From positions 1-57,597 of IMG/VR virus record IMGVR_UViG_3300037119_000577: a stretch of DNA of 57,597 nucleotides; one strand, written 5' to 3'. The notes under the pieces were generated by a model. It saw only the letters and a list, made by a program, of their open reading frames with translations, did not search any database and was not told the DNA's origin. This document shows, piece after piece, positions 5,123 to 54,679 of the stretch. Origin of the DNA: a virus. Numbering within the stretch: the stretch's first letter is position 1; every line of letters begins with the position of its first letter. Both the position numbers and the translations under genes were made by a program.

Positions 5123-5159
5123 AAAATCCTCATATAAGGCGGACGGGGGGTGTAGCCTA

Positions 5160-5384: not shown

Positions 5385-5394
5385 ACGGCCTCCC

Positions 5395-5664
5395 TCACTT
5401 GTTCGTGAATACCCCGTACGACTCAATGATCGAAGTGCGTATTCTCCACTCGTCTCCCAGTTTTTGGGCGTCCTTAAATCCTTTATCTTTAAAATCTCCC
5501 GTCTCGTATACTAAAAACGCGTTACGTAAAATGATGTCGGTACTATTAACCCCTACAAGCTCCCCATGATATATGTAATTTAGGCAGAAAAACGTTACAT
5601 TCTGCCCCAGCAAAGCTTCCATACCTTGGCCTTCGACTTCTTGAACTTGTACTAGCTTTTTCAT
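5395..5664 (-). CDS. Conserved phage protein of unknown function, 89 aa
   Basis: Start chosen at the ATG at 5664 (MKKLVQVQEV). The central part, with NYIYHGELVGVN, then FLVYETGDFKDKGFKDAQKL and IIESYGVF, matches a pattern I know from many phage genomes as a short beta-rich conserved protein of unknown function. The YIYxGxLVGVN strand resembles an Sm-like barrel strand, but that is only an impression. Confidence 0.7.
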   Translation of the reverse strand: MKKLVQVQEVEGQGMEALLGQNVTFFCLNYIYHGELVGVNSTDIILRNAFLVYETGDFKDKGFKDAQKLGDEWRIRTSIIESYGVFTNK

Positions 5665-6753: not shown

Positions 6754-6942
6754 CTACCACTGTTTATCGTCCGGAATGATCCAACCTTTAGGTTTCTTTT
6801 TCGGATTCAGTAACTGGGCGGTCTCGCAGCAAAATTGGGGATACATCGCCCACCGACTAGGGTTTAGCCAGATCACGCGGAGTTCTTCGGGTGTGACGTA
6901 TCGCCAAGGATTCAGGGTGTCGAATTGGTGAAGCCAGATCAT
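6754..6942 (-). CDS. CPT-core family micro-protein, 62 aa
   Basis: Begins MIWLHQFD and contains the family core as FCCETAQLLN near residue 38, followed by a Lys/Pro-rich tail. The ATG overlaps the stop of the polymerase C-terminal gene as ATGA. It is one of six family members on the minus strand; three others sit just upstream of the polymerase. Function unknown. Confidence 0.75.
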   Translation of the reverse strand: MIWLHQFDTLNPWRYVTPEELRVIWLNPSRWAMYPQFCCETAQLLNPKKKPKGWIIPDDKQW

Positions 6943-7802
6943 TTAGCGTCCATCCACGTAAATCCTGAAACGAACCCGACCCTAATCTTGACTGTCCATC
7001 CGAGATCGTCGTTTAAAGATTGGACGGCGGCTTCTTTAGCGGCACGGAATTCCTCGAGGCGGTCGGTAGGCACTTCTGCCAAAATTTCGTCATGAATTAC
7101 GGTCACGAACCGACTGTAAGGCGCTAGAGCGAAAAGTTTGGCCGTCAGTATATGGATTAATCCAGACACGGAACTCTGGATCAAATAATTAAACGCCTTG
7201 CGAGGTTCGGGGGTTAGCCTATACCCAAACTCGTTTATCAATGCCCCGTCTAACTTAATCTGCCGCTCGAGACTGTCGGCCAACTCGCGAACTTTCGCAA
7301 AAAGTGCCCAATACACATTATAGAATTCCTTAGCCTCCTTAAACGACAATATGAATCCGTTTTCGTACGCAGTATTTACTAATTTGCGAGGCTGCATAGA
7401 ATAACCGAGACCGAGGCAAAGGATTTTATGCAGTTGTCTCAGGGTCTTAAGGGATTTCTTAATAATATCGTCGTCGGCTACCCACTGGTCCGCGAACGAC
7501 CCCGCAGGCCACGTCGCGTTGAACGCGGCGCGCACTTCGTCCTTACCTATCGGCGACCGGCTGGCCACCATTAAATAAATATCAGAAATCATCAACGTGT
7601 GATTACTATCGTAGTACGGCCGCTCGCCAACGCCGTCCAACGTTGCGTACCGGTACATGCGATCGCCGGAATAGTGACTAGTAACCGCAGGCTCTCCTGA
7701 AGCCAGGTCCATTGACACGATTGTATAACCTGGATCAGTCTCGATACACCGCATTAGCTCGGGGCTTTTCCTGCTGAGCCCTTGAGGATTTAATCGGGCC
7801 AC
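6939..7802 (-). CDS. Family A DNA polymerase, C-terminal part (palm and fingers), 287 aa
   Basis: Carries motif A (VSMDLASGEPAV, catalytic Asp), a motif B region (HKILCLGLGYSM, a KxxxxGxxY pattern) and motif C (VIHDEILAE, catalytic Asp). It starts inside what should be one continuous motif: RLNPQGLSRK normally follows the Thr-x-x-Arg segment that ends the N-terminal part at 8371. The GTG at 7802 is preceded by GGAGG with five bases between, so this part appears to be translated on its own and would have to assemble with the N-terminal polypeptide. A spliced intron is the alternative, but the insert leaves little room for a ribozyme. Confidence 0.88.
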   Translation of the reverse strand: MARLNPQGLSRKSPELMRCIETDPGYTIVSMDLASGEPAVTSHYSGDRMYRYATLDGVGERPYYDSNHTLMISDIYLMVASRSPIGKDEVRAAFNATWPAGSFADQWVADDDIIKKSLKTLRQLHKILCLGLGYSMQPRKLVNTAYENGFILSFKEAKEFYNVYWALFAKVRELADSLERQIKLDGALINEFGYRLTPEPRKAFNYLIQSSVSGLIHILTAKLFALAPYSRFVTVIHDEILAEVPTDRLEEFRAAKEAAVQSLNDDLGWTVKIRVGFVSGFTWMDAK

Positions 7803-8374
7803 GAATGCCTCCGACTCATGCAACGGTCAAACCATAACTTAAATTCAGTTAATGTCAGGTCGTTTTTGGCCACATTGCATGTTCCGCAACATGCTCGTAA
7901 ATTGTTAACTAGGTATCCTGCAGTGTTATCTAATCTATCTACCCCATTAACGCGTACCGAATCCGCGACTCTACCGCCTCGATTATATGTCTTAATATTA
8001 CTACTTGCGGGTATACCGCATATATAACATGGCGACATTATCAGGTCTCGGAATTCGTCTAAGGTCACAGAAAATTCGTAATTCCGGCTCTTGGCGTTAA
8101 ATTTATAACTCCGAAAATGCTGGCGCGTGGCGGCCTCCCCATCGGGTAGCCGGCTCAGGTTCTTGCGCGGACGATTCGCCCACCGGTCTGCTTTACAGCC
8201 ACACGAGGGTAGAGGTCGATACCGAAGATACGGCCCTCTGAACACCCGCTCGGTTCCGCAATCGCATCTACCTAAGTAGTAGGGTACTTTATTTTTGGTG
8301 TGCGAAAAACTTAGTACGGTCACTAATCCGAATTTCGCGTTGATCATATCGATCCGATTGTGCGCAGCAGTCAA
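7790..8374 (-). CDS. HNH homing endonuclease splitting the DNA polymerase gene, 194 aa
   Basis: The N-terminal domain has the pattern common in phage HNH proteins (FGLVTVLSF, YYLGRCDCGTERVF, SCGCKADRW), with a putative zinc site. The C-terminal part has CYICGIP, a conserved GVDRLDN, LRACCGTCNVAKND and FKLWF, an HNH with CxxC zinc pairs. The TTG start at 8374 lies behind GGGAGG, which is part of the codons for the polymerase's Gly-Gly; the TGA of the upstream half overlaps it. The ORF fills the whole interval between the polymerase halves. HNH endonucleases such as I-HmuI of phage SPO1 are known from DNA polymerase genes. Confidence 0.88.
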   Translation of the reverse strand: MTAAHNRIDMINAKFGLVTVLSFSHTKNKVPYYLGRCDCGTERVFRGPYLRYRPLPSCGCKADRWANRPRKNLSRLPDGEAATRQHFRSYKFNAKSRNYEFSVTLDEFRDLIMSPCYICGIPASSNIKTYNRGGRVADSVRVNGVDRLDNTAGYLVNNLRACCGTCNVAKNDLTLTEFKLWFDRCMSRRHSWPD

Positions 8375-9585
8375 TGGCGACCTCCCGCCATACGGCTCGT
8401 GCTAGTCCCGGCAACTTTGATGTCGATATACCAACGATTACAGTGACTTGACGCCGCGTATAGAGCGTCAATCTGTTTCAGTACGATCATGCGCTTCTTC
8501 CGTTTCTGTAACATTAGTCCCGGCTCGCCCCACTGACCCAGTAAACTAGCCTTCGTAGACGGGGCTCCCTTCTTAGTAAAGAACTTGGGCACCATCCCCA
8601 TCTTAATCATAAATAGGTGCACCAGTTGCGCCCCCGATCCGGGATTGAATTTCACTTCCTTGAGTGCCTTCGGGTCCCCGGCGCGGTACTTACGAAGACG
8701 GCCCTCCCGACCCTTGTCGGTCTTAACCTTACTCAACCACTTCTGTAGGCGGTCCTCTTCGACTTCCGCGATCTGAGGGGCGTACGCCGTCAAAAAGCGC
8801 TGCTCAATCTCGGTAATCTCCTTGGCGACGATTTCCCGGTTCTTAAGAGCGAGGGGCCGGTTAATCGGAACGCCCCGGATCTTAGCGCCCACCACGAAAT
8901 CCGCGGTCGACTTGTACAGCTGGTGATCGAGGGACCAGTCGTACCCGATCGTCACGAAATAGTCCGTGATGAACTTATAGAGGCGGAGGGTAATCTCAGT
9001 GTCCGCGACGTTGTAAGTACGCAGAATGTCCGGGGGCAGCCGATCGAGGTACATACCCTCCTGGCCCTTCTTAACCCCGGGCACGTTCGCCTTGATCCAG
9101 TCGTGGGCCTCTTTTTTATGGGAGACGGTTTCACCGAGGATCCGGAGGGCGCACTTAACGAGACCGAGGCCCGCGGTTGGGATCTTTTTAACCTCAGGGG
9201 TCTCCCCGTACTCAATAACAACGGACTCGTCGACCACGACTTCAAACGCGCTCTTGTCGCCCCCGTTATCATACACTTGCGCGAGGCGCATCGTATCGAA
9301 GGCCAAGTCGGGCTGTAGGTGCGGGTATCGACACAGGAAAACGCCCTTCTCGAATTGGTAGTTATGGACTATAAATTGGTAGCTGTCGGCGACAAGCTCG
9401 GCGATACGTTGGCCGACTTCGACTTCACCTACCAAGTACTCTGACCGGATCTCGTCCCCGACGAACTCGGAAAAGGCACACGACATTACCCGGAACAGGG
9501 GCCTGTAGTATTCGGTCGAGGCTCGAAAGGACCCGTCGGGCTGGAGTTCGCCGGTCTCAAAGTCCAAGCATATTATCTTATACAT
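8371..9585 (-). CDS. Family A DNA polymerase, N-terminal part (3'-5' exonuclease and start of polymerase), 404 aa
   Basis: Exonuclease motifs are in order: CLDFETGE (residues 7-14, metal-binding Asp and Glu), IVHNYQFEKGVF, and YNVADTEITL. The polymerase domain starts in the second half and stops right after GTSTSRMAGG, the Thr-x-x-x-Arg motif, followed by two stray residues and a TGA. The ATG at 9585 (MYKIICLDFE) is preferred to the upstream in-frame ATG at 9651, because the upstream stretch is occupied in another frame by a CPT-core gene. Together with 6939-7802 it would make a T7/PolI-type replicative polymerase of about 690 residues. Confidence 0.88.
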   Translation of the reverse strand: MYKIICLDFETGELQPDGSFRASTEYYRPLFRVMSCAFSEFVGDEIRSEYLVGEVEVGQRIAELVADSYQFIVHNYQFEKGVFLCRYPHLQPDLAFDTMRLAQVYDNGGDKSAFEVVVDESVVIEYGETPEVKKIPTAGLGLVKCALRILGETVSHKKEAHDWIKANVPGVKKGQEGMYLDRLPPDILRTYNVADTEITLRLYKFITDYFVTIGYDWSLDHQLYKSTADFVVGAKIRGVPINRPLALKNREIVAKEITEIEQRFLTAYAPQIAEVEEDRLQKWLSKVKTDKGREGRLRKYRAGDPKALKEVKFNPGSGAQLVHLFMIKMGMVPKFFTKKGAPSTKASLLGQWGEPGLMLQKRKKRMIVLKQIDALYAASSHCNRWYIDIKVAGTSTSRMAGGRH

Positions 9586-9695
9586 AAGGTGAACATCTCC
9601 ACCGTGGGGCACATAGTCCGCATCGTAATCGTCGGGTATGTCCGCGACCATCTATAGTAACGGCCAAGTAAGAACGTATCTTCTACCCAATACAT
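9573..9695 (-). CDS. CPT-core family micro-protein, 40 aa
   Basis: Begins MYWVEDTFLL and ends with the core MCPTVEMF and six residues. It overlaps the start of the DNA polymerase gene by 13 bases in another frame, which is why the polymerase start is placed at 9585. One of three family members in tandem here. Confidence 0.75.
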   Translation of the reverse strand: MYWVEDTFLLGRYYRWSRTYPTITMRTMCPTVEMFTLCIR

Positions 9696-12452: not shown

Positions 12453-12586
12453 TGTTTGGTTCCTCCATTAAGCTTATCGTCGGTCCGTCTGGAAAACTTT
12501 AGCAGTTTCTCAGAACCGCAGCGAGGACAGCGGGTTACCTTGGTGCGCATTAATAGTCGGCAAGAGGCGCACTTGTATATAGTCAC
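12449..12586 (-). CDS. Small zinc-ribbon protein, 45 aa
   Basis: GTG start overlapping the exonuclease stop as GTGA, and an ATGA overlap at its end. Two CxxC pairs (YKCASCRLL and RCPRCGSEK) separated by about 11 residues form a typical zinc ribbon, followed by a basic tail. It may be an accessory to the exonuclease, which ends in a zinc ribbon of its own, or a small DNA-binding factor. Confidence 0.72.
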   Translation of the reverse strand: MTIYKCASCRLLMRTKVTRCPRCGSEKLLKFSRRTDDKLNGGTKQ

Positions 12587-13371
12587 CGGGACCCCGGCCG
12601 CAGAGACGCCTTCTTTTCCAGTGAAAGCAGATTGTTACGATCACGGGTCTCCGCGCCGCACTCGACGCATTTGTATCTTTGATACTTACCAACCGCGGTA
12701 AACTTGTAACCGTTCTTCTTAAACTCCGTGGATCCACAGTTACACTCAGTATCTAAGGATGCGGAATACATATTGAAATTGATCGAGTTATCCCACGGTT
12801 CGAGCTTCTTATAAAGTTCCTCGAGCGAGAGTACATCGTACTTATTATACCGCTCCATCTCTTTCCACGCCGCCAGATTGCCCGCGAGGCACTCCTTCCA
12901 CAATTCGAACCCGCCAAACTTCGCGTGCTTGATCTTCTTGTACTTAACGCACAGTTTGTCCGTCATGTACTCGAGCTTATTGGAAGTAAATTTGAAATGC
13001 TTGGACGCGATCTGTTTGGTATCAATATGCTTAAACGACGATGGGGGCTGAAATCCGTTGAGAATGAACCGCGCGTTCAATTTCTTCTGATCAAAGGACT
13101 TTCCATTTTGGGTGATTACGATATCGGCCTCGTTAAGGAGGTCCCAGATACCCTGGAGCAGCTTGCGGTCGTCTTGGATGTCCTTAACGCCCCGCTGATC
13201 CTTGTACATGATCTTGGTAGGCGGATCATGCAGCCACTTGGCGGACCACGAAAGTACGTGCCAGTCGGAATGGACCTGATTGAGGGCGACGTTGTTCTCC
13301 CAGAGACCCCACACATAGCCGAGCATGGGAGCCGTCTCTATATCAAAGATAAGGACCTTAGGCTTACTCAT
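12583..13371 (-). CDS. DEDDy 3'-5' exonuclease with C-terminal zinc ribbon, 262 aa
   Basis: RNase H-fold exonuclease motifs appear in order: LIFDIETAP (residues 7-15), VITQNGKSFDQKKLNARF, and YNKYDVLSLEELY (Y-x3-D form). This is the layout of exonucleases related to the family B polymerase proofreading domain. The C-terminus has CNCGS and YKCVECGAE, a zinc ribbon. It sits in the recombination/replication operon and probably trims DNA ends for recombination with the Sak4-like ATPase. Confidence 0.8.
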   Translation of the reverse strand: MSKPKVLIFDIETAPMLGYVWGLWENNVALNQVHSDWHVLSWSAKWLHDPPTKIMYKDQRGVKDIQDDRKLLQGIWDLLNEADIVITQNGKSFDQKKLNARFILNGFQPPSSFKHIDTKQIASKHFKFTSNKLEYMTDKLCVKYKKIKHAKFGGFELWKECLAGNLAAWKEMERYNKYDVLSLEELYKKLEPWDNSINFNMYSASLDTECNCGSTEFKKNGYKFTAVGKYQRYKCVECGAETRDRNNLLSLEKKASLRPGSR

Positions 13372-14832: not shown

Positions 14833-16293
14833 TTATGATTCTGCCCAAACTATAGACTCGACGAAGGACTTAGGCAACTTGTCCTTATACTGGCGAATGA
14901 GTCGGCTAAAGTTGCCGTCCAGAATGTAGGTCTTCGAAAAATCATCAGGATCCCGGGTGGACCGCCCGCACGCCTGGATCACCACTTTAAGCGTCTCGAG
15001 CGCGTACCAATCGTCCCCATCCTGGAGGGCCTTCCTCTTCGCAACAATCGGATCTTTGAGGTCGGGGAACGGGAGCTTAGGTATAATATTCAGGCGGCAC
15101 AGATCGCCCTTCAAGTCGATCCCCTCGGCGCACCCCGACGCCAGAAACACGCCCCCGTGCTGCTTAAAGAAGTCTAGCTTTTCAATCTTGTTCGTGGAGT
15201 CATTCACGATCACGGGCCCCGAAAAGTGGGGAGCCAGCTTCTTGGACATCGAGTACGTCGTATGGACCAAAGTATTAAGGCCCAGATTCGCCGCCAAGAT
15301 CTTCTCGATTTCGCCCACGATCTTCCGGGGGTCCGCCTCCCAATTCATCCGGAACGGGGCGGGCTTGAAGTACACGGGCCGATTCTCTTTGGGGATCGGG
15401 GAGGGCGCGTCTAGGAATTTAACGTGCCGATCGCCCACCAGATCGAGAATGTCGGACTGCATCAAGGTTCCCGACATTAAGATCAACTTCTTGGCTCTTA
15501 ATAGTTTATCAACGACGAACCGCGGAGGCCGGATGGGCTTAATATTAAGATACCGATCGGGCCTACCCCGGTACTTACCCGAATCGATCCACACCGCGTA
15601 ATTCTCGGGGGCCTCCTCCAGGCCGCGGAGGGTCATCCGGATTTGCTCGAGTTCGCGGGTTATTTCGGCGAACCGTGTGGGTTGGGCCTTATAGTAAATC
15701 GCGAGCGCGGACAGCTTTTTGATCTGATCCTGGAGCCACCGACCGAGGAATACGGTATTCGTGACGGTCTCGGGGAACTTGAACATCGAATACCGGAGCC
15801 GAGATCCGCACAACAAGAGGAGCATCGACGGAAGGGTGTGAGCCTCGTCGACTATCAGGACGTTCGGGTCCTCCCACCCCTCTGCCTGCGTAAGATAATA
15901 AAGCGACATAGGGTTAAAGAACGTCGGTTGCGTAAGGGCCCGCTGCTTACAAACGGTATAGGGGCAGTCCTGACACGCTTTTTGCTCAAGGGTGTTAGTC
16001 CAATCGTGGCACGAATAACCCGACGAGCAGTTATAATGGGTCTTCCCCTTCAAGAAATTCTTCTTTGGGTATGAAGCGGCGTACTGGTCGATCAGAAGGT
16101 TCGACGGCGTTATAACGTGGGCCCCGGTCACCAGGGAGATTGCCTGCGCTAAGGCGGACTTCCCGAGAGCGACGGGGAAATTGCCCGCGAGGATCGGGTG
16201 CTTCCAGTTTTCGGCGAACCACTCAAGAACGTCCTTCTGAACAGGTCGAGGAACGCGCGAGGTGCCATCGAAGTATTTAAGGAAGTCTACCAT
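14833..16293 (-). CDS. XPD/DinG-like superfamily 2 helicase, 486 aa
   Basis: A Walker A-like segment (FPVALGKSALAQA), DEAH box (LIVDEAHTLPS), a motif III-like LILMSGTL and motif VI (QACGRSTRDPDD) fit the Rad3/XPD/DinG group. Four cysteines between motifs I and II (NCSSGYSC and CQDCPYTVC) match the position of the iron-sulfur domain of that group. These enzymes unwind DNA 5' to 3'. The ATG at 16293 follows GAGG and lies four bases from the stop of a CPT-core gene. It is the likely replicative or recombination helicase, as no DnaB-type helicase is seen. Confidence 0.85.
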   Translation of the reverse strand: MVDFLKYFDGTSRVPRPVQKDVLEWFAENWKHPILAGNFPVALGKSALAQAISLVTGAHVITPSNLLIDQYAASYPKKNFLKGKTHYNCSSGYSCHDWTNTLEQKACQDCPYTVCKQRALTQPTFFNPMSLYYLTQAEGWEDPNVLIVDEAHTLPSMLLLLCGSRLRYSMFKFPETVTNTVFLGRWLQDQIKKLSALAIYYKAQPTRFAEITRELEQIRMTLRGLEEAPENYAVWIDSGKYRGRPDRYLNIKPIRPPRFVVDKLLRAKKLILMSGTLMQSDILDLVGDRHVKFLDAPSPIPKENRPVYFKPAPFRMNWEADPRKIVGEIEKILAANLGLNTLVHTTYSMSKKLAPHFSGPVIVNDSTNKIEKLDFFKQHGGVFLASGCAEGIDLKGDLCRLNIIPKLPFPDLKDPIVAKRKALQDGDDWYALETLKVVIQACGRSTRDPDDFSKTYILDGNFSRLIRQYKDKLPKSFVESIVWAES

Positions 16294-16463
16294 ACGTTCC
16301 TCTTTCCTAGCTGAATGAACATATCTATCGTGGGGCACGCGGGAATAATTTTAATAGAGGCGGGCTGCCTAAGCCTGGCTAATTGCGCGCGGTCACGCTT
16401 ATAATTACATCTAATCCATATACCTTGGTACGCCGTCAACCACCCATCTTGTGGGTCGATCAT
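16287..16463 (-). CDS. CPT-core family micro-protein, 58 aa
   Basis: Begins MIDPQDGWLT and carries the core PACPTIDMFI at residues 41-50, followed by QLGKRNVW. Its ATG overlaps the RuvC-like gene stop (ATGA), and its own end carries the helicase ribosome binding site. So it is translated between the resolvase and helicase genes. Confidence 0.75.
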   Translation of the reverse strand: MIDPQDGWLTAYQGIWIRCNYKRDRAQLARLRQPASIKIIPACPTIDMFIQLGKRNVW

Positions 16464-18282: not shown

Positions 18283-18295
18283 GTCCAGCCATTCT

Positions 18296-43142: not shown

Positions 43143-44915
43143 TTATTGAGCCGGGGGTAACTGCTGCTGGGACGCGGCCGCCTTCTTAATGAGAGCGTCA
43201 CTTTGGCTGATCCAACGCCGCAAGAGTTCCAACGTGGATTCGGGAACCTTAGTGGACCGCGCCCGCAGGTACGCCGAGTGGAAGATACGGATACCACTGA
43301 CTAAATCCTGCATCGGATCCGGGGCCTCATAACGGCCGGTCTTCATGATCCGCTCGAGCGTCTCCATGATGTCGTCCATAGGGGCGTTCACCATGGACGC
43401 GTACGTATCCAAGTCCGGGAAATCAAGGAGCTTCATAGCTTGCTCTTTAGGGACGTACCCGGCGTTCACCAGGTCCTCGACCATCTGAAGGCGGCCCGCG
43501 GGCGTGTGCGGGAGCATCGAGACGGGGAAAGCTTTCATAATGAATTCATTGCCTTCGGTCTTAATGTCGGACCACTTAATCCGCTCGATGAACTTCTTGG
43601 ATTCAGCTTGAGCCTCGTAGTCCACGCCCGACTCGTACATCTCCTTAACCAGGTCGATATAAATGCGGGCGGTCTCCATAAAGGTCCGCTCGTACTCCTG
43701 AGAGATAATCGCGAACCGCTCGGTCTCGATGTCGTTGTACTCACGGAGCGCCTTCCCCGAATCAAGGCCCGCCGGCTTAACCGACGACGCCGACAGCTGG
43801 GAGATGCCCGCTTCTTCGTACGAGGACTGGATCAAGAACTGAAGATGCCGGAAATATTCCTCGGACACCACTTTAGGGACGTAGTACTCGGGCTTGGTGC
43901 CAGTGTAGTACACTAACCCACCGATTTCATTGGAAAGATGCTCTTTCGCAATCTTCGAGCCGTGCTCGAGGAACACCTTGAACGACGATCCCAGGTGGAA
44001 CGCCCGCTGGATCATCCGAAGCATCTTGTTGATCTCGATCTGGTTACCGGTGAGCCGGTTGGCCAGAGAGTCGCCCCAGAAGCCCGTAAGTCGCGGAGAC
44101 CAGCGAAACCAGGTAAACGGCGGATAATCTTTAGTGTAGTCGTTGATTTCTAGCCAATCTTTATCCGTGCATATAACATGCTTACCGTCATCGGCGCCAG
44201 GCTTAGACGCCGTATACCAAGCCTCGACCACTACAACGTAATCTGCGGCGGAGTCCGGAGTATCAATTTGCGAAGTTAACGTGTTCGACGACATCTTAAT
44301 AGACGCCGCTTTCTTGGGAAACATCTGTGTTAACACGGTCTTATGGATAAATTTCACTTGAAAATACGACCTGGGCTTACCGTACATGGCGTCAACCGGG
44401 TCTACAAAGAGTTCGTTGGCATGAACGCGCTCCGACTTTATACGATCGCCATCTATGTAATGCTTAATCGCCCCACAGTCCGCGACCGTAGCGTCTCTAA
44501 ATCCTGCCTGATGTAGTCTGTGCACACCGTTGGCATAAAAAAGACCGTCCACGAATTTCGACAGATCTTGAGCCTGAGACTGAGAGGAATAGTCACCCCC
44601 CTCAGTAAGAAACGTGATCCGAGGACGTATCTTTGAAATTTTCGCAGATACCGTGTCACACATATTAGTCACTATAGATAATTTTACTCGACCCTGATCG
44701 AGTGACGGCATGGTAAAAGACTGAACAGACGACCCGTATCCGCCAACGTCCGATACCTCACCATAAAGGCGCATACATCGAATATTACGGTCACGTCGGT
44801 CCGAAGTAGATGCCCATAAAGCCGAAACCGTATCGAAAATATGCCGGTGGATGTTATCTTTAGGCTCTAACCACCACAATTTCGACAATCCCGCCGTCCC
44901 TGGCGCGTTTTTCAT
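43143..44915 (-). CDS. Portal protein, 590 aa
   Basis: Located between terminase and scaffold. Its start was set at the ATG at 44915, overlapping the HNH stop (TAATG), not at the in-frame codon at 44966. Segments such as WFRWSPRLTGFWGDSLANRL and LDSGKALREYNDIETERFAI are typical of podovirus portals. The length of about 590 fits. It forms the dodecameric channel at one capsid vertex. Confidence 0.85.
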   Translation of the reverse strand: MKNAPGTAGLSKLWWLEPKDNIHRHIFDTVSALWASTSDRRDRNIRCMRLYGEVSDVGGYGSSVQSFTMPSLDQGRVKLSIVTNMCDTVSAKISKIRPRITFLTEGGDYSSQSQAQDLSKFVDGLFYANGVHRLHQAGFRDATVADCGAIKHYIDGDRIKSERVHANELFVDPVDAMYGKPRSYFQVKFIHKTVLTQMFPKKAASIKMSSNTLTSQIDTPDSAADYVVVVEAWYTASKPGADDGKHVICTDKDWLEINDYTKDYPPFTWFRWSPRLTGFWGDSLANRLTGNQIEINKMLRMIQRAFHLGSSFKVFLEHGSKIAKEHLSNEIGGLVYYTGTKPEYYVPKVVSEEYFRHLQFLIQSSYEEAGISQLSASSVKPAGLDSGKALREYNDIETERFAIISQEYERTFMETARIYIDLVKEMYESGVDYEAQAESKKFIERIKWSDIKTEGNEFIMKAFPVSMLPHTPAGRLQMVEDLVNAGYVPKEQAMKLLDFPDLDTYASMVNAPMDDIMETLERIMKTGRYEAPDPMQDLVSGIRIFHSAYLRARSTKVPESTLELLRRWISQSDALIKKAAASQQQLPPAQ

Positions 44916-45499
44916 TATGCAACGTCCTTGTACTTGGCAGACTTTTTGAGATTGTCGGCCGCCCATAGAGGCTGTAAATTTGTGTAATGGCAGGCTTTAA
45001 GAAATTGTTCGCGGTCCGTTAAATCGAAGGATGCCAAGGGCTTAATATGATCAATATGCCAACCTTGCTTTCCATGATTATCCCACGTCATACCCGGTTG
45101 AAACTTTGTCTCTAGATACCTGCGTAATTCGTCTACAGTGCATCCTACGTCTTTTACCGCCGATCCGATCTTCTTTCGCGTAGATTTAACTGCCGCCGCG
45201 ACCCGCACTCGCAATACTTTCTTAAGCCGGAATTCTACATCGATTGCGTACCTCTCTCTTTCCCGGACTCTAGTCGCGGGCAAACGCTGTCTTGCATTCT
45301 CCTTAAATATCGCCGCGTTCTCGAGATAATATACAGCCTTATTCGCCTTAACGGCCTCGGCATTTAGTGAATTATACGCGGCAGAGGCGCGTTTAATTTC
45401 CTCAGGCTTATCTACGTAACGCTGACGGGCGCGCGCCTTAATAGTCTCTTTATTATTTTGGTAGTACTCTGCGGCCTTGATTTGTTTAATAGTTTTCAT
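44915..45499 (-). CDS. HNH endonuclease between terminase and portal genes, 194 aa
   Basis: A long basic N-terminal helical part (NNKETIKARARQRYVDKPEE) precedes the HNH core (GWHIDHIKPLASFDLTD and ACHYTNLQPLWAADNLKKS). This is the common free-standing phage HNH type. It ends in a TAATG overlap with the portal. Confidence 0.86.
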   Translation of the reverse strand: MKTIKQIKAAEYYQNNKETIKARARQRYVDKPEEIKRASAAYNSLNAEAVKANKAVYYLENAAIFKENARQRLPATRVRERERYAIDVEFRLKKVLRVRVAAAVKSTRKKIGSAVKDVGCTVDELRRYLETKFQPGMTWDNHGKQGWHIDHIKPLASFDLTDREQFLKACHYTNLQPLWAADNLKKSAKYKDVA

Positions 45500-47390: not shown

Positions 47391-47824
47391 TACTTACCCC
47401 AGAAGGTGAAAGGGTCGTACGTGTAATCTTGCCGTCTACTTATCGCTTTGAAAACGGGCGGGGTCCGGGTCGAATACCGCACCGACGTATGGGGCAGCTT
47501 TAAGAGTTCCGCCTCCATAGCCTTCGCGACCCCGAACCCGCGCAGGGCGTGCTTACAATAGAAAAAATGGAGGATGAGGACGTCCTTGTCCACTTCCCCC
47601 ACTCCCCACCCGTAGATCAGGTCAGGTTCCGCCGGATCGCAAGCTATTACAATGTTTGACCGTTTAAGGAGACTCTCAACAATCGCATGCATCGCAGGAT
47701 AGTAGGTCGAATTGGGCGTACCCGCGACGAACGTAGAGTCCCTAAACGTCTTAAGGAACGAATTAAACACGAAGCTCACGTCGCTCTCAGACGGGGCCCG
47801 TAGGTGCCAATGCGGCTTGTCCAT
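47390..47824 (-). CDS. GNAT-type N-acetyltransferase-like protein, 144 aa
   Basis: The start at 47824 (MDKPHWHLRAPSESDVSFV) is better placed after AAGGA than the upstream ATG at 47833. The pattern (VIACDPAEPDLIYGWGVGEV, then FYCKHALRGFGVAKAMEAEL, corresponding to the acetyl-CoA binding R/Q-x-x-G-x-G/A loop) is that of GNAT-like proteins often found next to phage terminases. The substrate is unknown; modification of host or phage proteins is possible. Confidence 0.75.
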   Translation of the reverse strand: MDKPHWHLRAPSESDVSFVFNSFLKTFRDSTFVAGTPNSTYYPAMHAIVESLLKRSNIVIACDPAEPDLIYGWGVGEVDKDVLILHFFYCKHALRGFGVAKAMEAELLKLPHTSVRYSTRTPPVFKAISRRQDYTYDPFTFWGK

Positions 47825-48002
47825 TGCTATCATCCTTAATAGTGGCCAACTGGCCCTCGAGCGCCTTCTTGGCCCTCGTTAGATCTGCCATCTCGGAACG
47901 AAGCTTCGCAAGGGCGGCCTCTAGTTCCTGAAGCTTAAACGCCCGGTCCCCCATTTGAACGGCGATCCGGGTATACTGCTGATTAAGTTCTTCTTTATTC
48001 AA
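47787..48002 (-). CDS. Coiled-coil protein, 71 aa
   Basis: Starts at a TTG at 48002 with GGAG upstream and just below a strong promoter; the longer frame to 48086 includes the promoter itself. Heptads are clear (FKLQELEAALAKLRSEMADL). As the first gene of the late transcript and before the terminase, it might be a small-terminase or packaging accessory, but no HTH is visible. Confidence 0.6.
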   Translation of the reverse strand: MNKEELNQQYTRIAVQMGDRAFKLQELEAALAKLRSEMADLTRAKKALEGQLATIKDDSNGQAALAPTGPV

Positions 48003-48057
48003 GGCCTTGGCTCCTATTGATACTGGAAGTGTGCAAGAATCGCGCCACTCTGTTATC

Positions 48058-48086
48058 AATATAGACCGAGGCACTCTTAATGTCAA
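48058..48086 (-). promoter_or_regulatory. Strong sigma70-type promoter for the virion genes
   Basis: TTGACA (48081-48086) and TATATT (48058-48063), spacer 17 bases, on the minus strand, a few bases downstream of the TV-Pol-like gene stop and 55 bases ahead of the first late gene. Confidence 0.72.
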
Positions 48087-48089
48087 CTA

Positions 48090-49439
48090 TTATTGAATCT
48101 TGGGGACCCAATCATTGTAGTCTTTATACTTGCGCATCAAGACCTTGTAACAGGACTCCATATAATGCCGCAGCGTATCCTTATCTTCCGCTTTTACGAT
48201 GAAAGAATCGTGAACCCCTAAACAAGGTCTACCGGCGCGCTTGAACGATAACATAATATTATTAGCCAGTTGCGAGTCTAGATATTGTAGGTCAAGCCCT
48301 ATACCTGTAAAAAATTTATCTGCAATCGGGGCGTGCGCGCCTATTAGCAAATCGATCAAAGACTTTGCCGGGTCGTTGCAGTCCGACACACTTAACCCAT
48401 CATGCAAGATGATACCCTTCTCCTTTAAACCGCTTACAATGGCCTTAATCGCAACCTGGCGCGACGTTGCGTTAAAGACGCACATCAGGGCCACTTTCGC
48501 CGCCTCGCGGTTTAGCGGGCCAATTCCGGCTGCCTGGTAGGGATCTCCGACTACAGGTGCACCTTTAATATGGTAGATCATCGTCGGATGCAAAGAGCTG
48601 TAGTCTAACTCAACCGTAGGCTCCCCATCGATCTCTATAGTGGCTCGCTCCAGCTTACGCAGGTTCTGGAAGTCCGCGTAAAACCTACCCCCCTTATGGA
48701 ACCTCCCCATGAATACTCTATTAAATGATATAGACGCCGGTTCCAAATCTATAGATTTCCTATTTGGGTTACTTATCAGTAATGATTGGTCTAATGTACT
48801 AAGTCTTCTATGTAGGAGGGGGAGGGAGAGGGGGGGAGGGGTGTACCTATACTTATAGGATAGATTACTATCATTAATTAGTCCTAATAACTGATGAGTC
48901 TCTTTAATCTTTCCAGATAAGTAGTACTTCATTAACTTACCCGTATCAGGGTTCCGTAGGAGGAGGCGCCCCTTTTCCTTTATTTGTTCGGTACTTAGGG
49001 TGTTTACGTACTGAGCCAGCAATCGGTTAAACTTAACCGTAGGCCAAAGACCAGTACGGAGGCCCTTTTCGTAACCTGGCGTTTTGAATCCCTTTTTCTG
49101 TTCTAGAAAACCGTCTCGCTCGAGGGTGTCGATCGCTAAGACTAATGCGGCTAGGTTTATATGTTTGTAATTGTACACCTTTGGGTCCTTAACATAGTCC
49201 GACGCGGCCCGCGAGACCACGACGCGGCACTCCGACGCCTGTTGCTCGGAGATCAAGGATGCGCACGCGAGATTGAATATGAGACATGTATACGCGAGCT
49301 GCGTTTCGGGACCGGGACCAACGTTAAATTGTCCAATGATGTTGCGGGATAGGTCGCCGATTTCGCCCCGGGACATCGAGAAAAAAATGAATAGGCCGTG
49401 GGGGTCTGTGCCAGACTTCGGTAAGGTATCAATACTCAT
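48090..49439 (-). CDS. TV-Pol-like polymerase of superfamily A, 449 aa
   Basis: The C-terminal half has a polymerase palm pattern: RFYADFQNL, then VELDYSSLHPTMIYHIKG (motif A-like, Asp followed by SSLHP), DPYQAAGI, a Lys-containing helix (REAAKVALMCVFNATSR, motif B-like), LDLQYLDSQLANNIM and GVHDSFIV (motif C-like His-Asp). This matches the TV-Pol family described by Iyer and colleagues, related to superfamily A DNA polymerases and T7 RNA polymerase and proposed to be prim-pol-like. The N-terminal half is unassigned. It is divergent from the plus-strand array, far from the other polymerase. Confidence 0.7.
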   Translation of the reverse strand: MSIDTLPKSGTDPHGLFIFFSMSRGEIGDLSRNIIGQFNVGPGPETQLAYTCLIFNLACASLISEQQASECRVVVSRAASDYVKDPKVYNYKHINLAALVLAIDTLERDGFLEQKKGFKTPGYEKGLRTGLWPTVKFNRLLAQYVNTLSTEQIKEKGRLLLRNPDTGKLMKYYLSGKIKETHQLLGLINDSNLSYKYRYTPPPLSLPLLHRRLSTLDQSLLISNPNRKSIDLEPASISFNRVFMGRFHKGGRFYADFQNLRKLERATIEIDGEPTVELDYSSLHPTMIYHIKGAPVVGDPYQAAGIGPLNREAAKVALMCVFNATSRQVAIKAIVSGLKEKGIILHDGLSVSDCNDPAKSLIDLLIGAHAPIADKFFTGIGLDLQYLDSQLANNIMLSFKRAGRPCLGVHDSFIVKAEDKDTLRHYMESCYKVLMRKYKDYNDWVPKIQ

Positions 49440-49457
49440 CGTAAAGGCTCCTGCAAG

Positions 49458-49486
49458 TTAGTGCCCGACAGACTTATCGGTAAAAT
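49458..49486 (+). promoter_or_regulatory. Candidate promoter of the plus-strand array with operator-like dyad
   Basis: TTAGTG (49458-49463), 17 bases, TAAAAT (49481-49486), about 50 bases ahead of the first array gene. The spacer is CCCGACAGACTTATCGG, holding a CCGA/TCGG dyad at 49465-49480, and the CCGATAAG word (minus strand) recurs at 2167-2185 and 2434-2452. A repressor may act here. Confidence 0.4.
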
Positions 49487-49538
49487 CTATTAAAGTCTTG
49501 AGGGCCGTCTGCCGATTAGTGGGGTGGAGGTACGATTT

Positions 49539-49703
49539 ATGATTTTATGGGTGCAGTTTAGAACGCCGAATACTCCCGATAGACTCGAGGGCCGGCACGG
49601 TCGGTGGGGGTTCGACACGGCCGGGGCCCTTTATCCGGCCCGGGGCTGGGTTAACGCGAGATACGTACCCTACTGCCCCACCGTCGGCATATTTTGGGCA
49701 TAA
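49539..49703 (+). CDS. CPT-core family micro-protein, 54 aa
   Basis: First gene of the plus-strand array. GGAGG precedes the ATG. It begins MILWVQF and ends PYCPTVGIFWA, so the core is almost at the C-terminus. The middle (residues 10-40) is Gly/Arg-rich. Confidence 0.75.
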   Translation: MILWVQFRTPNTPDRLEGRHGRWGFDTAGALYPARGWVNARYVPYCPTVGIFWA

Positions 49704-49718
49704 TTAAGGAGTCCGTGT

Positions 49719-49895
49719 ATGTGGGTTCATAGTGGCGGCCCCGATTCGCCGGTTAAGTTGCTCAGGTCGGGAGATATGGCGGGCCTACAAAATCCGATGT
49801 ACGAACCTTTCTCGGCCTGGCTTGCGCGCACTTGTTCATGGGACTTCTGCTGCCCCACCGCGCAGCTTTTCAATCGGGGAGGGTCGAACCTGTGA
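49719..49895 (+). CDS. CPT-core family micro-protein, 58 aa
   Basis: Behind TAAGGAG with eight bases to the ATG. Begins MWVHSGG; core FCCPTAQLFN at residues 43-52, tail RGGSNL. Its TGA overlaps the GTG of the next gene. Confidence 0.76.
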   Translation: MWVHSGGPDSPVKLLRSGDMAGLQNPMYEPFSAWLARTCSWDFCCPTAQLFNRGGSNL

Positions 49896-50739: not shown

Positions 50740-50830
50740 AATTATGTTCTAAAGTTTTTCCGCGCGGGGTCGATAAGAAGTAAGTGAGTTGCGAAAGTCC
50801 ACTATTAATATCTTTACCGGAGTAACGTCG
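50740..50830 (+). other. Leader before the MoxR gene
   Basis: A 91-base gap in an otherwise overlapping array. It contains a T-rich stretch (AAAGTTTTTCC), a TATTAATATC word and GGAG ahead of the ATG at 50831. An internal promoter is possible but no clear -35/-10 pair was found. Confidence 0.35.
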
Positions 50831-52069
50831 ATGAATCTTAAAGAGTACCGCGAGGCGCTGCCCCTACTGTTCCAGGCACGCGTAACGTCACTTTGCTGGT
50901 CATTTCACGGAGTTGGAAAGAGTTCCGTTCCGCAACAATTTGCGGACGAGGGGGGCCATAAGCTAGTCAATTACCGTCTCGGCAATGTGGAGGCCGGGGA
51001 ACTTCTAGGTATCCCGACCGAGGTTATTGACCAGTACAATTCGGCCAATAAAGTCGCCACTCGCAACCTAATGCCCGAGTGGCTTAAAGATATGATCGCC
51101 TTTTGTGTAGCTAATCCGGATAAATATGGCATTCTACACTTGGACGAGATCAACCACTGCAGAAAAGACATGCAGTCATTCGTTTTCCAAATGTCCCTGG
51201 ATCACCGCCTGCACGAAACGGACTTCCCACCGAACCTTCATGTGATTTGTTCAGCAAACCCCCCTACGGACGACTACGCGGGCGTGTTCGACTTTTCCAA
51301 CAAGGCGCTCTTAAGCCGCTTCTGTCATATTAAGCTTCAGCCCACCTCCTCGGAATGGCTCGAGTATGCGCGCTTCAAAGAGTTCGACGCCGACGTGGTC
51401 GACTATATTGCTCTTAATCCGGAGCAGCTCGACCCGGTCCTTCAGCCGTTCTCCGTGGACGAATACGCGAACCGGAACCGCCGAAGTTTCGAGTTCTTCT
51501 CGAGGCTCCGGAAGCTGGGCGCCTCGAATGAGCTTCTGATGGGTATCATCGGTTCGGCGAACGTACTCGCTTTTAATAAGTGGCTCGACGAAGCCCGGGA
51601 AAAGTCCATTGTGGGTGCGGACATTCTCGACGGCTATTCGAAGGTCCAAGATCGGGTGCGCGAACTTGTGAAGGCGGGTAAAATCGCCTCCCTGACCACG
51701 ATAACCGCGTCCCTGGTGTCCGCAATCGAGCCGATCCCCGAGGCGGCCTTCGTCGACCAAGTGGACCGTGTGCGCAATGTGGCGGCCTTTATTTGCGACT
51801 TGCCCCCGGACATCGGTTGGGCCGCTGCGAGTCAGATCGTATTCCTTCCCGCCGCCCACTACGGTCCCGACAAGCCCACCGGCAAGGAGCCCACCCAAAC
51901 GCCCGGATCGATGTGGGGCCCCCACACGTGTCCGGAGCTTTACGAAACCGTAAAAGCGTGGAAGGAAGCGGGCATCGACAAGAAGCACCAGGCCGCGGAA
52001 GAGACGAAAGCCAGAGAGGCCGAAGTTGCCGCAGAAGCCCCAGTCGCCAAAAAGAAAAAGAAGGCTTAA
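50831..52069 (+). CDS. MoxR-type AAA+ ATPase, 412 aa
   Basis: Walker A is FHGVGKSSVPQQ, Walker B ILHLDEINHC, sensor 1 VICSANPPTDD, and an arginine-finger-like LLSRFCHIKL follows. Together these are typical of the MoxR subgroup. The C-terminus ends in a Lys/Ala-rich tail (AEAPVAKKKKKA). The ATG at 50831 is preferred to the in-frame TTG at 50789. MoxR ATPases act with VWA proteins; one lies 370 bases downstream. The pair may remodel or disassemble protein complexes in the infected cell. Confidence 0.85.
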   Translation: MNLKEYREALPLLFQARVTSLCWSFHGVGKSSVPQQFADEGGHKLVNYRLGNVEAGELLGIPTEVIDQYNSANKVATRNLMPEWLKDMIAFCVANPDKYGILHLDEINHCRKDMQSFVFQMSLDHRLHETDFPPNLHVICSANPPTDDYAGVFDFSNKALLSRFCHIKLQPTSSEWLEYARFKEFDADVVDYIALNPEQLDPVLQPFSVDEYANRNRRSFEFFSRLRKLGASNELLMGIIGSANVLAFNKWLDEAREKSIVGADILDGYSKVQDRVRELVKAGKIASLTTITASLVSAIEPIPEAAFVDQVDRVRNVAAFICDLPPDIGWAAASQIVFLPAAHYGPDKPTGKEPTQTPGSMWGPHTCPELYETVKAWKEAGIDKKHQAAEETKAREAEVAAEAPVAKKKKKA

Positions 52070-52086
52070 TCCTTTTAGGAGATCTC

Positions 52087-52299
52087 ATGTATATTATGTT
52101 GTATGTTATTGTACCTATCGGCTACAACGATAAGACAGACTGGGTCGATTTTATGGACGTTCAGTGCGCGGGCCCCTTTGATACTGAGGAGGCGATGCAC
52201 GAATTCGATATACCGCTATTAAGTGGTACCTGCGCCCCGCTTAAATTTTTCCGCCTAGATCCTGCGACGGGCCTATACGCGCCGTATCTTCCAGAATGA
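52087..52299 (+). CDS. Divergent CPT-core-like protein, 70 aa
   Basis: AGGAG precedes the ATG. It contains GTCAPLKFFRLDP near residue 48, which keeps the Cys and the Leu-x-Phe-Phe spacing but lacks Thr. The N-terminus (MYIMLYVIVPIGYND) is hydrophobic. It is coupled to the clear family member at 52296. Membership is tentative. Confidence 0.55.
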   Translation: MYIMLYVIVPIGYNDKTDWVDFMDVQCAGPFDTEEAMHEFDIPLLSGTCAPLKFFRLDPATGLYAPYLPE

Positions 52300-52439
52300 G
52301 AGTCTACTGGTCTCGCATCCGCGGCGACTACGGCCGCAACGTTGAGAATCCGGGTATGCGGGAGCTTTTCTGGGAGCATATCCCCTTAGAAGAAATCGCG
52401 TGCCCCACGGTTGGCCTATTTTTAAGGGAGTACTCTTAA
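52296..52439 (+). CDS. CPT-core family micro-protein, 47 aa
   Basis: ATGA overlap at its start and TAATG overlap with the VWA protein gene at its end. Begins MRVYWSRI, core IACPTVGLFLREYS. Being sandwiched between the two ATPase-system genes ties the family to that system. Confidence 0.77.
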   Translation: MRVYWSRIRGDYGRNVENPGMRELFWEHIPLEEIACPTVGLFLREYS

Positions 52440-53593
52440 TGGATATTAATCCCCTCGAGCGCGCGATCATGCACTTGATTCGCGAGGAGCGCTGGTACGC
52501 CGAAGTGATCATGCAACTGGACCGTAAGGAGGACCCCAAAATCCCGGGAGGCACCGCCGCGGTGGGTATTCGCCCCCGGCCCACCCTCTACTATCATCCG
52601 GATCTATTTGCGAATAACGACTTACAGACGAACGTCCAACTCCTTAAACACGAAGTGGTCCATCTTCTTAATCAGCACTTAACGCGCACGGGCGGAACGA
52701 TGAACCGCCTCCAGAACGCGGCTGCGGACCTCGCCGTTAATTCCTTTATCGACGGCTTTCAGGGCCTTAAGACGAAGGACCCCGACGGCCAGTGGACCTT
52801 CAAGAAGGGGTGCACGGTCGAGAATATGAAGGACCAGTTTCCGTCATTGATCAAGGGGCAGACTATGGAGTGGTACATTGCCGCTCTCAAGCAGGACGGC
52901 GCAACCGAGGGGGGTGCTCCCGACACGTCCGACGATCACTCGAAGTGGTCCGAGGGCGACTCGTCCGGGTCCGAACTCGAGGAGTACGCCGTCAAAGGGA
53001 TCATGCAAACCGCGGTCGAGCGCACCCAGCGCGCCGGGGGGCAGGTTCCCGACGGTCTTCGGGACCTCCTTAAGAGCTTGCTATCAAGTAAGAGCCAGTG
53101 GCAGCGGGAGCTTCAACGGTTCCCCCAAGATGCTGAAATCGTGGGCACTGAAGATACGTGGCGCCGCAGGAATCGGAGGTTGGGATCTATAGTTCCCGGG
53201 TCCAAGAAGGTCCGCAAAGTCAAGGTGTGCGTGGGTATTGATGTATCCGGATCGGTGGACGGGCCTCTGTTGCAGCTTTTTTACGCGGAAATCGACAAAA
53301 TCGCCCAACATGCCGAAGTGGTAGCGAGTTTCTTTGACCATTGCGTGCAAAAAACGCTCCCGTGGTCTGAAGTGCGCAAACTTTCCAAAATTCCGGGCGG
53401 GGGCGGTACCTGTTTTCAGCCGATGCTCGACGAGGCCACAAAGATTAAAGCTGATGGGCTAATCATGTTAACTGACGGCATGAACGGGGACACGATCACC
53501 CGGCCGAAGTACCCGGTAATCTGGGCCGTCCCGGAACAGTACAACTACGTGCCCCAATTCGGAAAGTTGGTCAATATTGCGGATCCGAAATGA
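52439..53593 (+). CDS. VWA domain protein with metallopeptidase-like N-terminus, 384 aa
   Basis: The N-terminal half has HEVVHLLNQH (an HExxH zinc motif plus third His) as in the DUF2201-type metallopeptidase domain. The C-terminal half is a VWA domain: VGIDVSGSVDG (MIDAS D-x-S-x-S), GGGGTCFQPM (Thr) and MLTDGMNGD (Asp). The middle is acidic and Ser/Gly-rich. This family is the usual partner of MoxR AAA+ ATPases. The start is the ATG at 52439 (MDINPLERAI), coupled to the preceding micro-protein gene. Confidence 0.84.
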   Translation: MDINPLERAIMHLIREERWYAEVIMQLDRKEDPKIPGGTAAVGIRPRPTLYYHPDLFANNDLQTNVQLLKHEVVHLLNQHLTRTGGTMNRLQNAAADLAVNSFIDGFQGLKTKDPDGQWTFKKGCTVENMKDQFPSLIKGQTMEWYIAALKQDGATEGGAPDTSDDHSKWSEGDSSGSELEEYAVKGIMQTAVERTQRAGGQVPDGLRDLLKSLLSSKSQWQRELQRFPQDAEIVGTEDTWRRRNRRLGSIVPGSKKVRKVKVCVGIDVSGSVDGPLLQLFYAEIDKIAQHAEVVASFFDHCVQKTLPWSEVRKLSKIPGGGGTCFQPMLDEATKIKADGLIMLTDGMNGDTITRPKYPVIWAVPEQYNYVPQFGKLVNIADPK

Positions 53594-54013: not shown

Positions 54014-54150
54014 TGTACTGGTTCACCATAAATGGGGGGCCTGAATGGGAATATTATATACCCGGGCGCTCCGGCGACACGGTCTACAGCAACGAAACGA
54101 TATGCGAAACGTGCCGACTCTTTTTACGCGAGTCTACTCATAATGCTTGA
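54013..54150 (+). CDS. CPT-core family micro-protein, CxxC form, 45 aa
   Basis: Begins MYWFTINGG, core TICETCRLFLRESTHNA. Its stop overlaps the ClpP-like gene start by eight bases. Third CxxC member in a row. Confidence 0.77.
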   Translation: MYWFTINGGPEWEYYIPGRSGDTVYSNETICETCRLFLRESTHNA

Positions 54151-54679
54151 CCAAATACACGAATTTAACATCGATCGCCGTAAGCGCACTCTCTATTGCT
54201 TATACGAGTCCATCGACGGCGCGGCGGCGAATCAATTCCTTAAAAATCTTGATTACCTCAATCGCACCAAGGGCCGGATCCGCGTATACTTTTCCACCAG
54301 CGGCGGTTCGGTGATCGACGGTCTCACGATGTACGAGGCGATCCGGCGGTCCGCCAATCCCGTAGATATCATTATTACCGGCGCCGTCCAGTCGATCGGG
54401 GCGTTTATTATCCAAGCCGCCCATCGCCGCCTGATTGAGCCCACTGCCTATATCATGTATCATTCCGGGACGTTCCAGACTTCGGAAACCGCCGTGGACG
54501 AGGTCGCTAAAGAGGCCTTGTTTACTCGCGACCAATTCTCGATGATCGACTCCTTGATGTATGCGCGTATCAAGCCAAAGATGTCCCTCGATGCGTTTCG
54601 GGAAGCCGTGAGGAGATCTATTTGGCTTGATGCTAGGCAAGCTTTGAAGGCGGGATACGTGGACGAGGTGCTTAAATGA
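54143..54679 (+). CDS. ClpP-like serine protease, 178 aa
   Basis: FSTSGGSVIDGLTMYEA (oxyanion loop), GAVQSIGAFIIQAA (nucleophile Ser), AYIMYHSGTF (His) and DARQALKAGYVDEVLK (C-terminal signature) fit the ClpP fold at the usual length. No signal peptide, so cytoplasmic. The ATG at 54143 is chosen; the frame open to 54032 overlaps the neighbour. Embedded in the CPT array, it may degrade or process substrates delivered by host chaperones or by the MoxR/VWA pair. Phage prohead proteases of this fold exist, but it is far from the capsid genes. Confidence 0.82.
   Translation: MLDQIHEFNIDRRKRTLYCLYESIDGAAANQFLKNLDYLNRTKGRIRVYFSTSGGSVIDGLTMYEAIRRSANPVDIIITGAVQSIGAFIIQAAHRRLIEPTAYIMYHSGTFQTSETAVDEVAKEALFTRDQFSMIDSLMYARIKPKMSLDAFREAVRRSIWLDARQALKAGYVDEVLK

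What the first reader, a model, noticed from the sequence alone, without database searches (positions are those of the whole stretch)
48090..49439. Second, TV-Pol-like polymerase in a phage without a visible primase
VELDYSSLHP, a Lys-bearing helix and GVHDSFIV give the palm motif order of superfamily A relatives called TV-Pol, proposed in the literature to combine primase and polymerase activity. No DnaG-type or AEP primase is recognised in the window, so this protein may prime replication.
Basis: partly seen in the sequence, partly recalled or inferred. Interest (0 to 1): 0.75.

Follow-up and report, generated by a model that had tools for sequence, protein, structure and literature searches.

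The report
Second phage polymerase, divPolA2/TV-Pol type
This phage gene encodes a small second polymerase of a recently described, untested family, and its place in related phage genomes hints that it may help start DNA replication, although a primase role is not shown.

Summary
Observation confirmed: 48090-49439 (-) encodes 449 aa with an intact superfamily-A palm (GGR hairpin, VELDYSSLHP, RxxxK, HDS). Pfam misses it; it matches PHROG_4756 and published divPolA2. The AF2 model resembles mitochondrial/T7 RNA polymerases and DNA Pol I about equally. A conventional, split PolA is also present.

No primase or DnaB was found in the window, but 19 of 19 relatives searched carry a DnaB-type helicase domain and 13 a TOPRIM domain, so the protein does not generally replace a primase.

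New here: (i) bacterial relatives sit beside resolvases/integrases, the TV-Pol setting, so divPolA2 and TV-Pol look continuous; (ii) the N-terminus is probably a winged helix; (iii) the Pol I ribonucleotide-gate Glu is His in 47 of 55 rows, unlike the assayed TV-Pol CCPol; (iv) the gene flanks the window's only divergent junction, is often near relatives' GC-skew minimum, and in ICP1 lies at the published theta-origin peak. The position evidence is suggestive, post hoc and phylogenetically non-independent.

Best reading: an origin-side primer-making polymerase. Function is inferred, not shown.

The parts
48090..49439 (-). Second polymerase ORF, 449 aa (P0001), divPolA2/TV-Pol-like
   Evidence: PHROG_4756 E 1.3e-54
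49041..49310 (-). Probable winged-helix core of the N-terminal domain, residues 44-133
   Evidence: AF2 models; weak matches, mostly winged-helix folds
48093..48746 (-). Palm/fingers region, residues 232-449
48678..48692 (-). Hairpin GGRFY with invariant Arg252
   Evidence: R in 55 of 55 rows
48585..48614 (-). Motif A VELDYSSLHP: catalytic D279; H284 at the Pol I E710 position
   Evidence: D 55 of 55, H 47 of 55 rows
48471..48512 (-). Motif B, N310-N323, with R311xxxK315, M319 and N323
48195..48218 (-). Motif C GVHDSFIV, catalytic D411
   Evidence: D 55 of 55, S 48 of 55 rows
49440..49831 (.). The only divergent strand-switch junction in the window by a three-gene rule, immediately upstream of the gene
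   Evidence: no iterons and no marked AT-rich stretch
47787..48086 (-). Next gene downstream, 99 aa, coiled-coil-like by eye, no clear family
8371..9651 (-). Main PolA, N-terminal part
   Evidence: phrog_17 positions 667-977
6939..7823 (-). Main PolA, C-terminal part with motifs A, B, C
   Evidence: DNA_pol_A E 1e-12; phrog_17 positions 983-1233
12583..13371 (-). DNA polymerase exonuclease subunit
   Evidence: phrog_403 E 3.5e-97
14833..16338 (-). DNA helicase with Helicase_C_2 domain, not DnaB-like

Best explanation
Shown by sequence and model: a minimal superfamily-A-type polymerase without an exonuclease domain, with its catalytic residues intact, of the divPolA2 lineage, which is continuous with bacterial mobile-element polymerases found in TV-Pol-type settings. 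Inferred from weak fold evidence: its N-terminal domain is a winged helix that binds DNA. Inferred: it acts at an origin next to its own gene, binding there through the winged helix and making a short primer de novo, or a primer transcript as T7 RNA polymerase does. The main PolA, with its exonuclease subunit and helicase, then elongates. Because the Pol I ribonucleotide-gate Glu and the K+8 Tyr positions are His and Asn, I expect it to accept ribonucleotides. It would work beside, not instead of, a gp4-type primase in relatives. In this phage the lagging-strand primase would be the host's, or one encoded outside this record.
For: Identity: PHROG_4756 E 1.3e-54; tblastn to MG592441 at 25685-26197, E 2e-9, inside AUR84708, the published divPolA2 model protein; a profile built from eight members (window plus seven phages), without AUR84708 or ICP1 ORF100, finds these two at 8.4e-45 and 2.9e-50. 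Fold: pLDDT 80.5, pTM 0.76; VIA Z 14.9 (rmsd 5.3, 273 aligned) to yeast mitochondrial RNAP, 13.8 (3.8, 227) to apicoplast PolA, 12.8 (5.2, 269) to T7 RNAP, 12.2 (3.6, 222) to T7 DNAP. Sugar gate: +5 after the motif-A Asp is H in 47 of 55 rows and E in 1; K+8 is N in 44 of 55, while CCPol keeps the E710 and F762 equivalents (PMC7581432, passages). Position: first gene at the window's only divergent junction; in 7 of 8 IMG/VR relatives tested a copy starts within 0.5 kb of a divergent junction; 9 of 17 relatives have a copy within 6 kb of the cumulative GC-skew minimum, 2.6 expected; [quoted passage not shown]
Against: In the nine named phages the junction link is looser: 1 of 9 within 0.7 kb, 2 of 9 within about 1.1 kb. 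ICP1's own skew minimum is 34 kb from ORF100, and the mean normalised distance to the skew minimum is weak (p 0.10 and 0.07 per set, 0.03 together). The relatives are not independent. The helicase gene used as a control lies within 6 kb of the skew minimum in 5 of 17. In the window itself the skew minimum is 21 kb away, though the record is linear. No iterons or strong AT-rich element at the window junction. The winged-helix call rests on Z 6.4 at best and Foldseek E 0.019 at best. CCPol primes only with its partner MP; no such partner is identified here. The main PolA of this phage also lacks the F762 aromatic, so that change is not diagnostic. The AUR84708 row has an E, Y or W at the +5 position, an F or Y at K+8 and E at the motif-C Ser position in my alignment, so the changes are not universal, or that row is misaligned.
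Confidence: 0.4

Rival explanations
1. Accessory DNA polymerase for repair, lesion bypass or recombination-primed synthesis: it extends existing 3' ends and does not prime.
For: Often present in addition to a replicative polymerase; DNA_pol_A in 12 of 20 records over the cut-off; variable gene neighbours; two copies in 7 of 19 relatives; one of the roles proposed for divPolA2 (PMC11348598 section 13).
Against: Pol I ribonucleotide gate (Glu) and K+8 Tyr are replaced; motif C is HDS as in T7-type RNAPs; repeated placement at divergent junctions and, in ICP1, at the theta-origin peak is not expected of a repair enzyme.
Confidence: 0.25
2. A minimal single-subunit RNA polymerase that transcribes phage genes from the divergent junction.
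For: Best VIA matches are mitochondrial RNAPs, within about 1 Z of PolA; the motif-C segment fits the ssRNAP profile better (hhalign E 8.8e-4) than PolA (0.031); KASIA's copy has a weak RNA_pol hit, E 0.0024; 2 of 35 members hit RNA_pol, best E 0.011; proposed in PMC11348598.
Against: KASIA carries a full T7-like RNAP as well; motif A lacks the T7-type DGSCSG pattern and K+8 is not Tyr; about half the size of T7 RNAP; no promoter-recognition element was sought.
Confidence: 0.2
3. One reading: the protein is this phage's substitute for a missing general primase, laying lagging-strand primers.
For: No DnaG/TOPRIM or DnaB found in the window; CCPol, classed as a TV-Pol, is a DNA primase with MP.
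Against: Relatives keep a DnaB-type helicase domain (19 of 19) and usually TOPRIM (13 of 19); the window record may be a fragment; host DnaG can serve.
Confidence: 0.1

Closest known systems
divPolA2 (Virol J 2024, PMC11348598; barbaviruses and Vibrio phages)
   Same: Homologous over the palm and most of the protein; palm with both Asp; no exonuclease; N-terminal domain in place of the thumb; present beside a regular DNAP
   Different: Window protein branches on the other side of a 95/96 split from the Barba, AUR84708 and ICP1 rows, with bacterial relatives, on a long branch; its record is only 57.6 kb and lacks a gp4-type primase-helicase
TV-Pol, N-terminal-domain subset (Iyer 2008, PMC2579912)
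   Same: Hairpin Arg, palm Asp pair, fingers Asp plus RxxxK; bacterial relatives next to resolvase or phage integrase genes
   Different: No direct alignment with a sequence named in that paper; the Ma-LMM01 record gave no match even at E<=10; no D5 helicase seen in the window
CCPol-MP PolA-SSB primase (PMC7581432, PMC10061031)
   Same: Exonuclease-less superfamily-A palm of a mobile element
   Different: CCPol keeps the E710 and F762 equivalents and needs MP to prime; here H284 and M319, and no MP-like gene identified
T7-type and mitochondrial single-subunit RNA polymerases
   Same: Fold match; HDS motif C; RxxxKxxxM in motif B
   Different: Much smaller; motif A and K+8 differ

Membership tests
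divPolA2 | Homology to the published reference AUR84708 and to barbavirus copies | tested here: met
   tblastn E 2e-9 to AUR84708's gene, about 5e-8 to Barba records; profile 8.4e-45
divPolA2 | Palm with main catalytic residues | tested here: met
   D279 and D411 in 55 of 55 rows, K315 in 55, R311 in 54
divPolA2 | No exonuclease domain; separate N-terminal globular domain | tested here: met
   No Pfam family in the protein at E<=1; models
divPolA2 | Encoded besides a regular DNAP | tested here: met
   Split PolA in the window
TV-Pol (Iyer 2008) | Hairpin Arg, two palm Asp, fingers Asp and RxxxK | tested here: met
   R252 55/55, D279 55/55, D411 55/55, D299 46/55, R311 54/55, K315 55/55
TV-Pol (Iyer 2008) | Thumb of two antiparallel helices | tested here: inconclusive
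   Model has one long helix 176-193 before the palm; residues 207-217 and 219-223 have low pLDDT
TV-Pol (Iyer 2008) | Homology to a named TV-Pol | tested here: inconclusive
TV-Pol (Iyer 2008) | D5 helicase, resolvase, integrase or transposase neighbours | tested here: inconclusive
   None recognised beside the window gene; in bacterial relatives integrase hits in 8 and resolvase in 5 of 64 neighbours scanned
Family A DNA polymerase, Pfam PF00476 | Curated profile match | tested here: not met
   No match at E<=1; not placed in this Pfam family, although the fold is related
Single-subunit RNAP, Pfam PF00940 | Curated profile match | tested here: not met
   Window none
PolA-SSB primase | Adjacent OB-fold partner and de novo priming | tested here: inconclusive
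   Neighbour 47787-48086 has no clear family; activity not testable here

The most novel reading that the evidence does not exclude
divPolA2 and the N-terminal-domain TV-Pols are one family of winged-helix polymerases that bind an origin next to their own gene and lay the first primer, probably of RNA: an origin-specific initiator and primase in one polypeptide, spread across ICP1, 80-140 kb Vibrio, Aeromonas and Rheinheimera phages, small prophages and bacterial mobile elements.
Probability: 0.28. Interest if true: 0.85.

Novelty: new member of a known kind. Interest (0 to 1): 0.6.

Why it matters
divPolA2 was published with its role left open between repair DNAP and RNAP, and the 2020 CCPol paper says that, to its authors' knowledge, no other TV-Pol had been characterised biochemically. 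The data here link the two groups, give a testable sugar-gate difference from CCPol, and place one member, ICP1 ORF100, at a mapped theta-origin peak in a genetically tractable phage, so the role can be tested with one deletion and one primer-synthesis assay.

Tried and rejected
Rejected: DnaG/AEP-like primase identity for the protein (no profile match). Rejected: the idea that absence of a primase goes with this protein. Ma-LMM01 was tried as a TV-Pol anchor: no match, a limit of sensitivity, not disproof. ICP1 ORF100 as a query in genome contigs found nothing. The window protein alone in viral contigs found nothing. Two PWH3a-P1 ORFs in alignment A1 were mis-picked non-homologs and were dropped before A2. 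The first hhalign run was accidentally global; it was repeated locally; those E-values are single comparisons and uncalibrated. No conserved partner gene next to the polymerase; KASIA's and the window's AAA ATPases do not match each other by BLAST there. Group I intron in the split PolA: no Rfam match of note. Origin-like repeats or an AT-rich stretch at the window junction: none convincing. The 55-row motif tally keeps only bacterial rows of at least 400 aa (15 of 20). My motif regular expression failed on 7 of 11 DNAP control rows, so the DNAP comparison rests on the four that were read. The GC-skew and junction tests were made after seeing the window's layout; set B (8 of the 10 IMG/VR records with handles G001-G010) was fetched after set A's skew result, but the junction statistic was defined only.

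Full report
OBSERVATION. Pfam gives no family at E<=1; PHROGs gives only phrog_4756, unknown function, E 1.3e-54 over residues 73-439. tblastn finds 290 phage records, all below 60% identity: Vibrio 146, Rheinheimera 115, Aeromonas 14 and others.

WHAT IT IS. One hit lies in the gene of AUR84708 of Vibrio phage 1.063.O, the reference model of divPolA2 in PMC11348598 (sections 13 and 15 and search passages read). That paper describes a palm with intact catalytic residues, no exonuclease, an N-terminal domain with no detected relatives, and a guess between repair DNAP and RNA polymerase. Another hit is ORF100 of ICP1. A profile from eight members, not including these two, finds them at E 8.4e-45 and 2.9e-50. 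Thirty-five rows (window plus viral contigs) keep R252, R265, E277, D279, R311, K315, H410, D411 and S412 invariant.

STRUCTURE. The AF2 model on 35 sequences has pLDDT 80.5 and pTM 0.76. Foldseek's best PDB matches are Pol I fragments (E about 1e-3). VIA gives mitochondrial RNAP Z 14.9 (rmsd 5.3, 273 aligned), apicoplast PolA 13.8 (3.8, 227), T7 RNAP 12.8 (5.2, 269) and T7 DNAP 12.2 (3.6, 222): RNAP and DNAP are close to tied. Among predicted viral structures the top hits include Aeromonas phage 2L372X and 4L372D proteins and a Barba31A protein named DNA polymerase. The N-terminal 149 residues modelled alone (pLDDT 75.5) match winged-helix proteins weakly but repeatedly: Foldseek best E 0.019, MarR, then replication terminator protein and PadR; VIA best Z 6.4 (below 8, so it may mean only a common arrangement). 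Single members also give weak hits to TrmB, HTH_27, F-93_WHD and others. I call this probable, not shown.

LINK TO TV-POL. Scanning bacterial genomes with an alignment of three viral-contig members gave relatives in Falsirhodobacter, Paracoccus, Hyphomicrobium, Phenylobacterium and others (7 loci), and 25 of 198 genomes of the Paracoccus family sample had a match. Near such genes are serine resolvases (L046, L047), a tyrosine integrase (L083) and terminases (L042, L048). In 64 neighbours scanned from 20 further loci, Phage_integrase appeared in 8 and Resolvase in 5. This is the setting described for TV-Pols with an N-terminal domain (PMC2579912, parts 1 and 2 of 3 read). In the tree the window falls with the bacterial rows and the HNL01 group (split 95/96), opposite Barba, AUR84708 and ICP1, but on a long branch. 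I found no statement joining divPolA2 to TV-Pol in the passages read or in the listings of searches; this covers only the open library. Direct homology to a named TV-Pol was not shown.

ACTIVE SITE. CCPol, classed as a TV-Pol, keeps the Pol I ribonucleotide-discriminating E710 and F762, uses dNTPs for priming and needs MP to prime (PMC7581432, passages). Here the E710 position is His284, His in 47 of 55 rows; the K+4 position is aromatic in 1 of 55; the K+8 position is Asn in 44 of 55; motif C is HDS in 48 of 55. The window's own main PolA keeps Glu, K+8 Tyr and HDE but also lacks the K+4 aromatic. T7-type RNAPs have DGSCSG-like motif A, K+4 Met, K+8 Tyr and HDS. The site is thus neither standard DNAP nor standard RNAP, and relaxed sugar choice is a prediction.

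PRIMASE QUESTION. In 20 records including the window, Toprim_2 passes its cut-off in 13, DnaB_C in 16 (19 at E<=0.1), the DnaG zinc ribbon in 1; the window has none. KASIA has an annotated DNA primase, a helicase, Pol I and a T7-like RNAP plus this protein. ICP1 has Pol I and a GP4-type helicase-primase (PMC9040626, passages). Thus the protein is not a general primase substitute, and the window phage may use host DnaG or lack part of its genome in this record.

POSITION. The window has one divergent junction by a three-gene rule, directly upstream of this gene. Of 8 IMG/VR relatives, 7 have a copy starting 154-500 bases from a divergent junction; the eighth has no such junction. In nine named phages the nearest-copy distances are 0.4 to 32 kb, with Barba at 0.38 and J2-1 at 1.0 kb. 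A copy lies within 6 kb of the cumulative GC-skew minimum in 4 of 9 and 5 of 8 records (expected 1.2 and 1.4; permutation p 0.019 and 0.006), 9 of 17 together (p 0.0004); the mean-distance version gives p 0.10, 0.07 and 0.03. The relatives fall into fewer lineages than records, so these p values are too small. In ICP1_2006_E ORF100 spans 58,951-60,618; the published early read peak, interpreted as theta replication from one origin, is near 60 kb in an engineered version of that isolate lacking CRISPR and cas2-3 (PMC7145576, passages), so coordinates may be shifted by some kilobases. ICP1's skew minimum does not coincide (34 kb away). A helicase control gene is within 6 kb of the minimum in 5 of 17 records.

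VERDICT. Polymerase identity: very likely (about 0.95). divPolA2 membership: met. TV-Pol membership: sequence features met, direct anchor missing. Function: origin-side primer synthesis is my best guess (0.4), ahead of repair DNAP and transcription.

Noticed in passing
window 6939-9651: The main PolA is split by an HNH/endonuclease VII-like gene (7790-8374) exactly between its two halves (phrog_17 positions 977 and 983), just before motif A; the ORFs overlap slightly at both ends; no Rfam intron match.
   Followed up: partly
window 17071-17751: 226-aa protein in the replication region that looks to me like a phage SSB (by eye, no family hit); a possible partner for a PolA-type primase.
   Followed up: no
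window 50789-53593: AAA ATPase (phrog_1297) and DUF2201/VWA-like protein pair on the plus strand, across the junction from the polymerase.
   Followed up: no
window 10643-11365 and 54032-54679: Two ClpP-like protease genes in one phage record.
   Followed up: no
window 3868-4581, 17806-18309, 44915-45499: Several homing-endonuclease-like genes (NUMOD4/HNH, HNH/AP2, endonuclease VII-like between terminase and portal).
   Followed up: no
window 3317-3892: 191-aa protein with an N-terminal EIEKKF that recalls a CYTH triphosphatase motif (recalled, no family hit).
   Followed up: no
records: 7 of 19 relatives with a match carry two copies of the polymerase.
   Followed up: partly
L042, L048, L082; L005 (KASIA); window: The polymerase gene often lies a few genes upstream of the large terminase on the same strand, in small alphaproteobacterial phage regions as well as large phages.
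   Followed up: partly
window about 4048-5396: An exact direct repeat of at least 39 bases (the script's limit) within one 1349-base tile, the longest of all tiles.
   Followed up: no
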